NCBI RefSeq assembly: GCF_003143515.1
Contig: NZ_CP029343.1
Location: 186,001-250,000 of the forward strand
DNA length: 64,000 bases
Direction: 5' to 3'
DNA from: Massilia oculi
GTDB lineage: Bacteria > Pseudomonadota > Gammaproteobacteria > Burkholderiales > Burkholderiaceae_D
In this document: positions 1,529 to 11,753 of the stretch, piece by piece
How the letters are laid out: each line of letters begins with the position of its first letter
Numbering within the stretch: the stretch's first letter is position 1
Made by a program: the position numbers and the translations under genes
The notes under the pieces: generated by a model
Told to the model about the DNA's origin: nothing
The model's database searches: none
The model's input: only the letters and a program-made list of their open reading frames with translations

Positions 1529-2614
1529 CTACCACCCCATTCTTTGCCGCACAAAAGCAGTCAGCAAGTCGGCATTCGCCTGGTGCTGCGCCACCCGCGG
1601 GTGCTTGCCATAGCCGGTGAACGGGAAGAACAGCGTATCGATGCGCCGGTCGCCCGCTGCCTGGAGATTCCCGACCGCTGTCTTGACGTAGCCCGGCCAC
1701 GGCGAACCGGGCCGGGTCGCATCCATGCTGCCGAGCGCACAGACGATATAGGCGTTCGGATACAGCGACCGCACACGCGCGACGAAGGCCTGGTAAGCCG
1801 CGATCCGCTGCGCCTCATCGGGTTCCGGCTGCAGCTTGTGGTCGCGCCCGATCAGCCAGCTGTCGTTCTGCATAAGGTTCACCACCACCACGTCCGGCGT
1901 CCAGCGCGAGAAGTCCCAGCGGCTGTCGTTGTCGCCGACGGCGCTCAGCTGATCGTAGAAATCGGGCATGGTGAACGGGAACCAGCTGATCATGATGCCG
2001 ATGCCGCCCTGCGAGGTGAAATGCGCCTCGGCGCCCAGCTGGCGGGCCGCGATCGCGGCATAGGAGCGGTAGTTGTTCTTGTCCTTGCCGTGATGGTCCT
2101 CGCCATCGTCAGGGGCTTCGTTGCCCATGCCGCTGGTGATGGAATCGCCGAAGAACTCGATCCGCCGTCCCGGCCTGGCCGGCGGCGGCTGCAATGACGC
2201 TGTATCGTCCAGCTCCAGGCCGAGGAACACGGTGGCGCCCTCCTCGCCCTCAGTGCGCTTGGTCAGCAGCAGCCGATGCGCGCCAGGCCTCAGCCCGTTG
2301 GCCACCAGATAGCGCTTCTTGCCCTTGTCGAGCTGCAGGATGATCGGGCGCTCGGTGTCGCCGTCGAGGAAGACGTTGTAATAGTTCTTGCCATGCTGGT
2401 CGTCGAGGACGATGGCCAGCGAAGTGCCGGTGAAGGTGGCCGCCACCGACGTGCCGGGCCAGCTCAGCACCGGCGCGCGGCGGTCGCCGACATCGATTCG
2501 TCCGGTGTACTGCAGGTGCTGGTGGTCGGGCGCCACCGTCTCGAGCGCGCAGGCTGGCGCCAGGGCGAGGAGACCAGCCAGGACCAGGCCAGCCGCGTAG
2601 GGAATGATGTTCAT
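1529..2614 (-). CDS. CE2-type acetylesterase (SGNH fold), secreted
   Basis: The protein is 361 residues. A signal peptide (to about ACA at 21-23) is followed by a jelly-roll-like N-terminal domain and an SGNH hydrolase domain with the GDS motif (EFFGDSITSG, Ser158), a later VVVNLMQNDS block and a C-terminal KHPR (His of the Ser-His dyad). This order fits CE2 acetyl-polysaccharide esterases. Substrate acetylated xyloglucan oligosaccharide is inferred from its place as the fifth gene after GH74, GH95, GH35 and GH31. A longer in-frame start exists at 2659, but its first 15 residues are Arg-rich and out of place; the ATG at 2614 begins a normal signal peptide. Confidence 0.85.
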   Translation of the reverse strand: MNIIPYAAGLVLAGLLALAPACALETVAPDHQHLQYTGRIDVGDRRAPVLSWPGTSVAATFTGTSLAIVLDDQHGKNYYNVFLDGDTERPIILQLDKGKKRYLVANGLRPGAHRLLLTKRTEGEEGATVFLGLELDDTASLQPPPARPGRRIEFFGDSITSGMGNEAPDDGEDHHGKDKNNYRSYAAIAARQLGAEAHFTSQGGIGIMISWFPFTMPDFYDQLSAVGDNDSRWDFSRWTPDVVVVNLMQNDSWLIGRDHKLQPEPDEAQRIAAYQAFVARVRSLYPNAYIVCALGSMDATRPGSPWPGYVKTAVGNLQAAGDRRIDTLFFPFTGYGKHPRVAQHQANADLLTAFVRQRMGW

Positions 2615-2661
2615 GGATTCCAGTCGAAAGAGCCGGGCACGCGCACGCGCCCGGCACATGG

Positions 2662-9570: not shown

Positions 9571-11753
9571 GCCGGGCCAGGCCTTCCATAGACGATGCCC
9601 CGCCCGGCGGTGCTCATGTAGACCACGCCGAAGCGGTTCATGTCGCCGACGATGAAGTGGCCGTCGCCGGGACCGCCGTACTGGTGGGCGTCGTCGTTGA
9701 TGCGCTGCCAGCTGCGCCCGAGGTCGAGCGAGCGGTGAATGCCGCGCACGCCCTTGATGCTGCCCCAGATGTACACGGTCGGTTCGGCCTTGCCCGGGGC
9801 GGCCTTGCCGAAACCGACCGCGCCGCAGTAGCCGACGCCGGCCAACGGCGCGAAGCTGGCGCCGCCGTCGCGCGAGCGCACCAGGCCGCCGTCCTTGAGC
9901 GCCACCCACAGGTCGCCCTCGCGGCCCGGCAGCGCGCGAATCAGTGTCGAACCACCCGACGGCAGGCTGGCGCGCGGTGCGAAGCTGGCGCCGGCATCCA
10001 GGCTGGCCATCAGTGCCTTGCCGTCATAGGCATAGAACACCTTCGGGTCGACCGGATCGGCGACGGCGCGCAGGTCGCGCCCGGCCAGGCCCGCCACCCG
10101 CGTCCAGCTGGCGCCATCGTCGGCCGACCGGTACAGGGTCGAGGAGCCCTGCGGCGCATGGACGAGGGTCGCGCCGTCGCTCGACATCGCGACCTTCCCG
10201 CGCTTGCCCTGCAGCGCCAGGGTCTGCGTCCAGGTCATGCCGCCGTCACGCGTGATCAGCATCGCATCCCCCACCCTGACCATGCTGCCCTGGCGGCGGG
10301 CGGCGGCATCGAGCCCTGTGGTGGTGCCGATCTCGGGCCGGTGGATGCGGCCCGGGCGCGCCGGATCGTCGTGCACGAAGCCGTCGTAGTCACCGATGGC
10401 GGAAACCAGCGGCGCACCCGGCAGGCTGACCAGGCCGAGCGGCACCGTCTCTTCCAGGCCTTTCACGGTAAACGTCCAGATGGCGGGCGTGGCGTCGATA
10501 TCGGGCGTGCGGAATACGCCGTTGCCGGACGTGACCCACACCGCACGCGGGTCGAGCGGATCGAATTCGACCGAACCGGCCCAGTGGATCGCATGGCCTT
10601 CGAGCCAGGGCACGCCGGCCGCGTCGCGCTGGAAGCCGCGCGCGATCACGTCGACCCAGCTGGCGCCGGCATCGGTGGACACATAGACGCGGTCGCCGCG
10701 CGCATCGCCCTGCGCGATGAAGGTATTGATGGTGGAGACCACCAGCCGCCCGGGATTGCCCGGGTCGACGCTGATCCCTGCGAACGGCCGGTTCGAGCCC
10801 ACCGGCGTGACGTTGCGCCAGGCGCCGCTGGCGATGTCGTATTGCCAGACCTGGCCGCGGTCGATCGGCTCGCTGCCGCTCTTGTCCGGGTGCGGGCCGG
10901 CGCCGTTGGCATAGGTGATGTACAGCTTGCCGGCCCCGTCGAAGGCCGCGCGCTGTGGCATCATCCCGGCCGGGCTGCGCGCCACCGGCACGAAACTTGC
11001 GCCGGCGTCGTCGCTGCGGTACAGGTTCGGGCCGACGCCGCCGAAGCGCGAGACGCCGACGAACAGCCGCTGCGCGCGGCCATTTTTCACGCTCGCCGGG
11101 TCCGGCAGCACGATGTTCAGGCCCACGTCGTTGGGCGTGGTCGTCACGGCCAGCGCCGGGTTACGCTGCCAGGTGGCCCCAAGGTCGGCGCTCTCGAACA
11201 GGCCGTCGCGGCGCGAGCCGAGGTAGAGGCGCTTGCTGGCGCCCGGGTCGACGGCCAGCCGTTCGCCGCCCTGGCGTCCGAAGCCGTTGCCGTGGGTCCT
11301 GAACTGGTGGCTGACGTCGACCACGTCGAAGGTCTTGCCATAATCGTTCGAACGCAGGATGGCGGTCCGCCCGCCGTTCAGGTAGGCGATCCCCGCCAGC
11401 AGCCACACCCTGGCGGCGTTGTCGGGGTCGATCGCCAGCGCGTCGATGCCCAGGAAGCCCGTCTGGTCCTCGCCCACCCAGTCGAGCAGCGGCGTCCAGC
11501 GGCCGTCTCTTGCGCGCCACCGGTAGGCGCCGCCCACGTCGGTACGGGCGTATGCGACGCCCGGTTCGCTGCGGCTCGGCACGATCGCGGTCACGAAGCC
11601 GCCGCCGCCGATCGCGACGCTGTCCCAGACATAGCTGGCGCCGTCCTGGACGACAGGGGCGGCCATGGCCACGGCGGCGACGCACACGGTCGCAACCACA
11701 CCCATGGTCGAGCGCCAACCCATGCCGGGTCGACGGGCGATCGTGGTACGCAT
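9567..11753 (-). CDS. GH74 endo-xyloglucanase, secreted
   Basis: The protein is 728 residues: signal peptide (cut near VAMAA), then two seven-bladed propellers built from BNR/Asp-box repeats. The N-terminal hallmark is VAIGGGGFV followed by RTDVGGAYRW with catalytic Asp72. The second catalytic Asp is at about 455 in AIGDYDGFVHDD. GH74 enzymes cut the beta-1,4-glucan backbone of xyloglucan. No carbohydrate-binding module or dockerin is present. AGGAG lies five bases before the ATG. It is the first gene of a five-gene leftward operon that ends with an esterase, and it is divergent from a 2-oxoglutarate semialdehyde dehydrogenase gene across a 193-bp control region. Confidence 0.92.
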   Translation of the reverse strand: MRTTIARRPGMGWRSTMGVVATVCVAAVAMAAPVVQDGASYVWDSVAIGGGGFVTAIVPSRSEPGVAYARTDVGGAYRWRARDGRWTPLLDWVGEDQTGFLGIDALAIDPDNAARVWLLAGIAYLNGGRTAILRSNDYGKTFDVVDVSHQFRTHGNGFGRQGGERLAVDPGASKRLYLGSRRDGLFESADLGATWQRNPALAVTTTPNDVGLNIVLPDPASVKNGRAQRLFVGVSRFGGVGPNLYRSDDAGASFVPVARSPAGMMPQRAAFDGAGKLYITYANGAGPHPDKSGSEPIDRGQVWQYDIASGAWRNVTPVGSNRPFAGISVDPGNPGRLVVSTINTFIAQGDARGDRVYVSTDAGASWVDVIARGFQRDAAGVPWLEGHAIHWAGSVEFDPLDPRAVWVTSGNGVFRTPDIDATPAIWTFTVKGLEETVPLGLVSLPGAPLVSAIGDYDGFVHDDPARPGRIHRPEIGTTTGLDAAARRQGSMVRVGDAMLITRDGGMTWTQTLALQGKRGKVAMSSDGATLVHAPQGSSTLYRSADDGASWTRVAGLAGRDLRAVADPVDPKVFYAYDGKALMASLDAGASFAPRASLPSGGSTLIRALPGREGDLWVALKDGGLVRSRDGGASFAPLAGVGYCGAVGFGKAAPGKAEPTVYIWGSIKGVRGIHRSLDLGRSWQRINDDAHQYGGPGDGHFIVGDMNRFGVVYMSTAGRGIVYGRPGPA

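What the first reader, a model, noticed from the sequence alone, without database searches (positions are those of the whole stretch)
1529..11753. Five-gene xyloglucan-degrading operon GH74-GH95-GH35-GH31-CE2
The order gives a stepwise breakdown: backbone cut (GH74), removal of fucose (GH95), galactose (GH35) and xylose (GH31 with PA14-like insert), plus deacetylation (CE2). All five carry export signals and gaps are -4 to 47 bp. The gene types match the known Cellvibrio japonicus xyloglucan enzymes (Xyl31A, Bgl35A, Afc95A), but here they form one transcription unit in what looks like a beta-proteobacterium. No TonB-dependent receptor or CBM is seen. Family calls rest on visible catalytic motifs; the joint function is inference.
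Basis: partly seen in the sequence, partly recalled or inferred. Interest (0 to 1): 0.75.

Follow-up and report, generated by a model that had tools for sequence, protein, structure and literature searches.

The report
Massilia xyloglucan-digesting gene cluster
A Massilia-type bacterium carries a compact gene cluster that very probably digests xyloglucan, a major plant cell-wall sugar polymer; it resembles a cluster known from Xanthomonas, but with a different deacetylating enzyme, a different xylose pathway and an unusual membrane-bound regulator just outside the window.

Summary
The five genes are real and correctly called: GH74, GH95, GH35, GH31 and CE2 on the minus strand, gaps -4 to 47 nt. 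By its closest named relatives the organism is a Massilia. The gene set has a precedent: Xanthomonas has a published locus with GH74, GH31, GH35, GH95, an esterase and two TonB-dependent transporters. Upstream lie a xylose ABC transporter and a D-xylose dehydrogenase; no xylose isomerase was found, so xylose is probably oxidised (Weimberg-type route). A xyl-box-like operator precedes GH74; the same 14 bases lie upstream of GH74 in 23 of 27 genomes of the genus that have it. Differences from Xanthomonas: CE2 in place of CE20, a GH74 from another branch, the operator, the xylose route, and a membrane-anchored AraC regulator whose periplasmic domain is predicted to fold like CBM11. Verdict: a new variant of a known kind. 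Substrate, cell location and regulation are inferred, not tested.

The parts
9567..11753 (-). GH74 endo-xyloglucanase candidate, 728 aa, exported, no CBM found
   Evidence: PDB sequence search: best 6p2l (605 bits) and 6p2m (408), both named as GH74 enzymes in PMC8245568 section 7; Xanthomonas XccXeg74 7kn8 355 bits; D72 aligns with the Asp that is Ala in 2cn3
7273..9570 (-). GH95 alpha-L-fucosidase candidate, 765 aa, exported
   Evidence: Pfam GH95 catalytic domain E 5e-152; best PDB FucOB 7znz, then Xanthomonas XacAfc95 7kmq; E486 in SPEHGP aligns with the Glu that is Ala in 7zo0, NxN and D of XacAfc95 kept
5570..7276 (-). GH35 beta-galactosidase candidate, exported; likely start 7243
   Evidence: NCBIfam GH35_fam 510 bits over cut-off 500; PDB 3u7v, 8fa4, Xanthomonas XacGalD 7kmn, bgl35A 5jaw
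2662..5544 (-). GH31 alpha-xylosidase candidate, 960 aa, exported, with PA14-like insert
   Evidence: Best PDB XYL31A 2xvg 1007 bits and Xanthomonas XacXyl31 7kmp 978 bits; both catalytic Asp and W453, W328, W524 equivalents of XacXyl31 kept
1529..2614 (-). CE2 acetylesterase candidate, 361 aa, exported (alternative start 2659)
   Evidence: Pfam CE2_N E 6e-32; Ser in GDSIT aligns with the Ser that is Ala in 2wab
11830..11843 (-). xyl-box-like operator TGTTAGCGCGAACA between GH74 and the divergent dehydrogenase gene
11795..11823 (-). Promoter candidate TTGCAA-N17-TAGCAT next to the operator
   Evidence: TTGC and TAGCAT invariant in 8 aligned upstream regions; hexamers picked by eye; the scan tool listed another, overlapping pair instead
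11947..13524 (+). Aldehyde dehydrogenase, alpha-ketoglutarate-semialdehyde type candidate, divergent from the operon
   Evidence: Best NCBIfam hits are 2,5-dioxovalerate and alpha-ketoglutaric semialdehyde dehydrogenases, but far below cut-offs (97 against 750, 94 against 770 bits)
13547..17316 (-). D-xylose ABC transporter genes xylH, xylG, xylF (xylF start by eye)
   Evidence: TIGR02633 xylG 862 bits and TIGR02634 xylF 481 bits over cut-offs; xylH best GguB 359 bits, below cut-off 450
17381..18172 (-). D-xylose 1-dehydrogenase (start by eye)
   Evidence: NF053674 430 bits over cut-off 400
18353..19456 (-). LacI-family regulator, XylR candidate
   Evidence: Pfam LacI and Peripla_BP_3; 68% identical to a second LacI beside xylan-degradation genes; no NCBIfam model over cut-off
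18229..18242 (.). Second xyl-box-like site, upstream of the xylose dehydrogenase gene
   Evidence: 2 mismatches
19586..19599 (.). Third xyl-box-like site, upstream of the LacI gene
   Evidence: 2 mismatches

Best explanation
This is the main enzyme operon of a Massilia xyloglucan utilisation locus. GH74 is exported and cuts the glucan backbone. The fragments pass the outer membrane through the TonB-dependent transporter encoded about 7 kb beyond CE2. CE2 takes off acetyl groups, GH95 fucose, GH35 galactose and GH31 xylose, and the neighbouring GH3 enzyme takes off the exposed glucose. The released xylose enters by XylFGH and is oxidised by a Weimberg-type route that ends at alpha-ketoglutarate. 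A LacI-type repressor on the xyl-box probably holds the operon off until xylose is present; a membrane-anchored AraC regulator with a CBM11-like periplasmic domain may add direct sensing of glucan fragments. Shown here: genes, families, residues, synteny, conserved operator. Inferred: one transcript, substrate, cell location, order of reactions, the xylose route beyond its first enzyme, and both regulatory steps.
For: Families and closest solved enzymes. Tested residues. Linkage in the genus: of 62 genomes, 27 have a GH74 match at E up to 1e-30; of these 25 have GH31 within 12 kb, 26 CE2 within 15 kb, 26 a TonB-dependent transporter within 30 kb (25 counted plus G058, added) and 23 the exact 14-base operator within 3 kb upstream in the same orientation. 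Full five-gene order in 11 of 26 Oxalobacteraceae loci with record titles; in at least 8 of the other 15 the stretch held ends at or soon after GH31, so CE2 could not be seen. Off-window TonB-dependent transporter, GH3, AraC, GH39: in the 7 relatives looked at, of 10 with this layout, transporter and GH3 were hit in 7 of 7, AraC in 6 (one only in its C-terminal part) and GH39 in 6. D-xylose dehydrogenase over cut-off; no xylose isomerase in the own genome while the same search rings in 6 of 14 controls. One type II secretin over cut-off. xyl-box sequence from PMC10380989 passages.
Against: No activity, expression or growth data. GH95, GH35 and CE2 families also act on other glycans (family knowledge). 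Secretion of GH74 was not tested beyond its N-terminus. The 2-mismatch operator search also finds sites beside genes that by eye look like gluconate and cellobiose-type genes and beside unrelated ones, so several LacI proteins may read the motif. 12 of the 36 exact 14-mers in the genus are not at this locus. No site at up to 3 mismatches lies near the transporter operon. G058 has GH74 and a transporter 14 kb away but no GH31 match at E 1e-200 and no CE2 match at E 1e-20. A xylonate dehydratase was not searched for, and the dehydrogenase at 11947 is far below its family cut-offs.
Confidence: 0.86

Rival explanations
1. The operon targets other or mixed beta-glycans (mixed-linkage glucan, glucomannan or xylan side chains), with xyloglucan only one of several substrates.
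For: The CE2 protein's only NCBIfam hit is a bifunctional acetylxylan/glucomannan deacetylase, below cut-off, and its PDB matches are named endoglucanase E and xylan esterases; the operator resembles the xyl-box, which also lies beside a cluster with GH10 and GH67 in the same genome; the CBM11 structures matched by the regulator model include one with a mixed-linkage tetrasaccharide.
Against: GH74 and the XyGO-type GH31 with PA14-like insert and W328 equivalent are the two most substrate-specific members (PMC8245568) and are linked in 25 of 27 genomes.
Confidence: 0.1
2. The operon is mainly under control of the off-window AraC regulator, and the xyl-box-like site serves only the divergent dehydrogenase gene.
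For: In the window the site lies between two divergent genes; the AraC gene has a single full-length copy in the genome, and relatives of it lie next to GH74 in L026 and L107, where no site at up to 2 mismatches was found in L026.
Against: The exact site stays upstream of the GH74 operon in relatives where the dehydrogenase gene is not its neighbour (L007, L009-L015).
Confidence: 0.3
3. The locus is a fading remnant, with the transporter separated and the operon no longer used.
For: In many relatives the transporter lies inside the operon; here it is about 7 kb away on the other strand.
Against: No stops, intact tested residues, 91-95% identical orthologues in M. arenae and M. timonae with the same order, and the same separated arrangement in 11 genomes, this one included.
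Confidence: 0.02

Closest known systems
Xanthomonas citri XyGUL (PMC8245568; abstract, passages, sections 6, 7, 34 and part 1 of section 10 read)
   Same: Clustered GH74, GH31, GH35, GH95, a deacetylase and TonB-dependent transport; neighbouring xylose genes; same tested residues in GH31 and GH95
   Different: CE2 instead of the CE20 esterase; GH74 closer to Niastella 6p2l (605 bits) than to the Xanthomonas enzyme (355 bits); a GH3 gene at the locus, where the paper found no beta-glucosidase gene; xylose dehydrogenase and ABC transporter instead of xylose isomerase, xylulokinase and MFS transporter; [quoted passage not shown] one transporter near instead of two
Cellvibrio japonicus XyGUL (Xyl31A, Bgl35A, Afc95A; names recalled and from the finding)
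   Same: GH31-GH35-GH95 core; the GH31 is closest to XYL31A 2xvg in the PDB
   Different: Per PMC8245568 section 6, not physically linked there to endoxyloglucanase or esterase genes
Bacteroides XyGULs
   Same: Function
   Different: Other backbone enzymes and SusC/SusD import (recalled); PMC8245568 section 6 reports only two or three XyG-related genes clustered in some species
XylR and xyl-box TGGTAGCGCTAACA of Xanthomonas, with XylR operators also in Caulobacter (PMC10380989 passages)
   Same: The window site read on the plus strand differs at 2 of 14 positions; a LacI regulator is next door
   Different: Here in front of a xyloglucan operon; binding untested

Membership tests
Proteobacterial XyGUL, Xanthomonas type | GH74, GH95, GH35 and GH31 genes clustered | tested here: met
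Proteobacterial XyGUL, Xanthomonas type | TonB-dependent transporter at the locus | tested here: met
   One at genome 177525-180524, about 7 kb beyond CE2, opposite strand
Proteobacterial XyGUL, Xanthomonas type | CE20 esterase XaeA | tested here: inconclusive
   The esterase in the operon is CE2; a Rhodanobacter SASA-type esterase (not shown to be CE20) found nothing in the own genome, without a positive control
Proteobacterial XyGUL, Xanthomonas type | Neighbouring xylose isomerase | tested here: not met
   TIGR02630 no match in the own genome, 6 of 14 controls ring
GH31 XyGO alpha-xylosidase | Catalytic Asp pair, pentose-selecting Trp, PA14 Trp, +2 Trp | tested here: met
   Equivalents of D564, D640, W453, W328, W524 of XacXyl31 kept in the alignment to 7kmp (chain and residue numbers related by an offset of 21 that fits all five)
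GH31 XyGO alpha-xylosidase | PA14 domain by Pfam cut-off | tested here: inconclusive
   21 bits against cut-off 24; the region aligns throughout with 2xvg and 7kmp
GH95 alpha-L-fucosidase | NxN and D catalytic residues named for XacAfc95, and the Glu that is Ala in 7zo0 | tested here: met
   the position of Xac T395 is His here
GH95 alpha-L-fucosidase | Activity on fucosylated xyloglucan | not testable with these tools
   Needs assay
GH35 beta-galactosidase | Family score over NCBIfam cut-off | tested here: met
   NF051902 510 against 500; motifs VQVENE and VPEMGN present, their role recalled, no alignment printed
GH74 xyloglucanase | Catalytic Asp | tested here: met
   D72 aligns with the Asp that is Ala in 2cn3; a second Asp in SAIGDYDG, recalled as catalytic, is kept
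GH74 xyloglucanase | Endo-processive or endo-dissociative mode | tested here: inconclusive
   The Trp-Trp pair of 6p2m aligns with Phe-Ile of the window; one Trp of 6p2l aligns with Phe and a second with Arg
CE2 acetylesterase | CE2_N domain and catalytic Ser | tested here: met
XylR / xyl-box regulon | Operator in front of the operon and LacI-family regulator gene near | tested here: met
XylR / xyl-box regulon | Binding released by xylose | not testable with these tools
   Needs gel shift or reporter assay

The most novel reading that the evidence does not exclude
The locus uses two layers of control that I did not find described together in the papers searched: a xylose-sensing LacI repressor on a xyl-box in front of the enzymes, and a one-component inner-membrane AraC regulator that reads beta-glucan or xyloglucan fragments in the periplasm with a CBM11-like domain. 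That regulator, 433 aa here, has 1450 scored relatives at E up to 0.001 (120 listed). It would be a carbohydrate-binding-module sensor fused across the membrane to a transcription factor, doing in one protein what hybrid two-component systems do in Bacteroides.
Probability: 0.4. Interest if true: 0.65.

Novelty: new variant of a known kind. Interest (0 to 1): 0.45.

Why it matters
It extends a complete single-locus xyloglucan machinery of the Xanthomonas kind to Massilia (Oxalobacteraceae) and shows which parts differ: the backbone enzyme branch, the deacetylase and the downstream xylose route. It gives a testable regulatory model (operator plus membrane AraC sensor). If the CBM-type sensor is confirmed, it would be a simple way for Gram-negative bacteria to sense plant polymers in the periplasm, and a usable reporter part.

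Tried and rejected
No transporter in the locus: rejected; it lies beyond the window edge. CE20-type esterase elsewhere in the genome: nothing found, but without a positive control. The truncated gene below CE2 as a sixth operon member: it is 42 nt away on the same strand and resembles the N-terminal half of RlmI, left open. The GH74 mode of action could not be decided. The GH74 tree is a quick one (LG+G4, midpoint root, long-branch warnings, no Xanthomonas sequence), used only as support. Foldseek on the unknown 644-aa protein of relatives gave GH164-type (Bs164) and GH42 enzymes at about 10-13% identity: fold class only, no function claimed. VIA-align on the regulator cannot exclude folds it did not list.

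Literature: searches for a Massilia or Oxalobacteraceae xyloglucan locus, a CE2/Weimberg xyloglucan locus, XylR with xyloglucan in betaproteobacteria (no paper) and AraC/CBM sensors in the open-access library listed no paper whose title or abstract start describes it; I opened only PMC8245568, PMC10380989 and PMC10766802 (the last two: passages only).

On recheck one left-out transporter row, in G058, lies 14 kb from GH74, so 26 of 27 replaces the 25; the 9 left-out operator rows lie on other contigs (7) or over 100 kb away (2), so 24 of 36 exact sites are at such loci (23 near GH74, one near GH31 in G029). In one search the database of the left flank had failed to build; the search was repeated with a positive control.
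Full report
What was checked. The five ORFs are present at the stated coordinates on the minus strand. The junctions are -4, -4, 25 and 47 nt; with a likelier start, chosen by eye, GH35 begins at 7243 (gap 29). High G+C gives long mirror ORFs on the other strand, which were not tested; the five named frames all have family or structure matches.

Families. Pfam: GH95 catalytic, GH31, GH35 and CE2_N domains are over their cut-offs; the GH74 protein only hits BNR-type repeat and related families, and PA14 is just below cut-off. 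PDB sequence search: GH74 best 6p2l (605 bits), Xanthomonas 7kn8 355 bits; GH31 best XYL31A 2xvg (1007) and Xanthomonas 7kmp (978); GH35 best 3u7v, then 8fa4, Xanthomonas 7kmn and bgl35A 5jaw; GH95 best FucOB 7znz and 7zo0, then Xanthomonas 7kmq; CE2 best 2wao. The Xanthomonas codes are those in PMC8245568, data availability.

Residues. Three pairs of solved sequences that differ at one residue point to the catalytic site: 2cn2/2cn3 for GH74, 7znz/7zo0 for GH95, 2wao/2wab for CE2. The window keeps the Asp, Glu and Ser. For GH31 the equivalents of D564, D640, W453, W328 and W524, named in PMC8245568 section 10, are all kept. For GH95 the N397/N399/D690 equivalents are kept, and the position of T395 is His. 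For GH35 only motifs were seen.

Organism and neighbours. The closest named relatives are Massilia arenae and M. timonae (GH74 92% identical; GH31 95%). Divergent from GH74 is an aldehyde dehydrogenase whose best matches are alpha-ketoglutarate-semialdehyde types, far below cut-off; then come xylH, xylG, xylF, a D-xylose 1-dehydrogenase over its cut-off and a LacI regulator. The genome has no xylose isomerase match. This points to oxidation of xylose by a Weimberg-type route; a xylonate dehydratase was not searched for.

Beyond the window. A search with the transporter that sits inside the operon of Massilia sp. Root133 found a full-length 60% match at genome 177516-180524, about 7 kb beyond CE2. 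The stretch holds a TonB-dependent transporter, a GH3 enzyme, an AraC-type regulator and a GH39 enzyme on the plus strand. In 7 of the 10 relatives with the same layout, which I looked at, the transporter and GH3 were hit in 7, the AraC gene in 6 (one only in its C-terminal part) and GH39 in 6.

Spread. Of 62 genomes of the genus, 27 have a GH74 match at E up to 1e-30; of these 25 have GH31 within 12 kb and 26 CE2 within 15 kb, and 26 a transporter within 30 kb (plus G058); in G035 the transporter is on another contig. Six genomes have GH31 with CE2 but no GH74 match. Of 26 Oxalobacteraceae loci with record titles, 11 show the five genes in order; 4 show only GH74 on that strand; in at least 8 others the fetched stretch ends at or soon after GH31. 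In L007, L009-L011, L014, L016, L019 and L021 the transporter lies between GH95 and GH35.

Operator. A 14-base near-palindrome TGTTAGCGCGAACA (one mismatch to TGTTAGCGCTAACA) lies at 11830-11843; two weaker sites lie before the xylose dehydrogenase and LacI genes, and a fourth, at 3 mismatches, at 58006 (2 of 100 shuffles gave four or more sites). The own genome has 14 places at up to 2 mismatches, against 4 for the reversed control. The exact 14-mer occurs 36 times in 27 of 62 genomes, with none for the reversed control; 24 of the 36 are at such loci, 23 of them upstream of GH74 in the same orientation. In 31 fetched loci the search at up to 2 mismatches gave 23 sites, against 0 for the control; L018-L021, L024-L026 and all five loci outside Oxalobacteraceae had none. 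In an alignment of 8 upstream regions the site is an island of conservation, followed by invariant TTGC and TAGCAT. The published xyl-box is TGGTAGCGCTAACA (PMC10380989 passages). Sites at 2 mismatches also lie beside genes that by eye look like gluconate and other genes, so the reader of the site is not proven.

Compared with what is known. The Xanthomonas XyGUL has the same four GH families, an esterase and TonB-dependent transporters. The differences are the CE2 esterase, the GH74 branch (in the tree the Oxalobacteraceae GH74 are parted from Dyella and Rhodanobacter by a fully supported branch, but no Xanthomonas sequence is in it), a GH3 gene at the locus, the xylose route, the operator and the AraC regulator (whether Xanthomonas has such a regulator was not searched).

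Noticed in passing
L137:12800-14101 (genome 182800-184101, left of the window): AraC-type regulator with predicted membrane helix, CBM11-like beta-sandwich and AraC domain; 1450 relatives scored, those with names among the 120 listed are from Massilia, Telluria, Duganella, Pseudoduganella and Rugamonas.
   Followed up: partly
L012:7964-9898 (also L007, L009, L010, L011, L014): Exported 640-aa protein between the operator and GH74 in other Massilia; no match in the Pfam, NCBIfam and PDB sequence copies used, though its homologues carry precomputed Pfam PF28584, PF28585 and PF27250; predicted fold resembles GH164-type and GH42 enzymes. Absent from the window and the 17.7-kb left flank; the rest of the genome was not searched.
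   Followed up: partly
L144 (genome 4956000-4975500): Second cluster with xyl-box-like sites in the same genome: GH10, GH67, a TonB-dependent transporter, glucarate-dehydratase-like and FAA-hydrolase-type genes and a LacI regulator 68% identical to the window's.
   Followed up: partly
window 851-1486: Same-strand gene 42 nt below CE2 resembling only the N-terminal half of RlmI (PUA domain, no methyltransferase half); a match lies at the same place in L003, L004 and L023.
   Followed up: partly
L012:19093-20196: A GH26 gene inserted between GH31 and CE2 in Massilia rhizosphaerae.
   Followed up: no
G003, G020, G029, G044, G048, G060: Genomes with the GH31-CE2 pair and a transporter but no GH74 match; only G029 keeps the exact operator nearby.
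   Followed up: no
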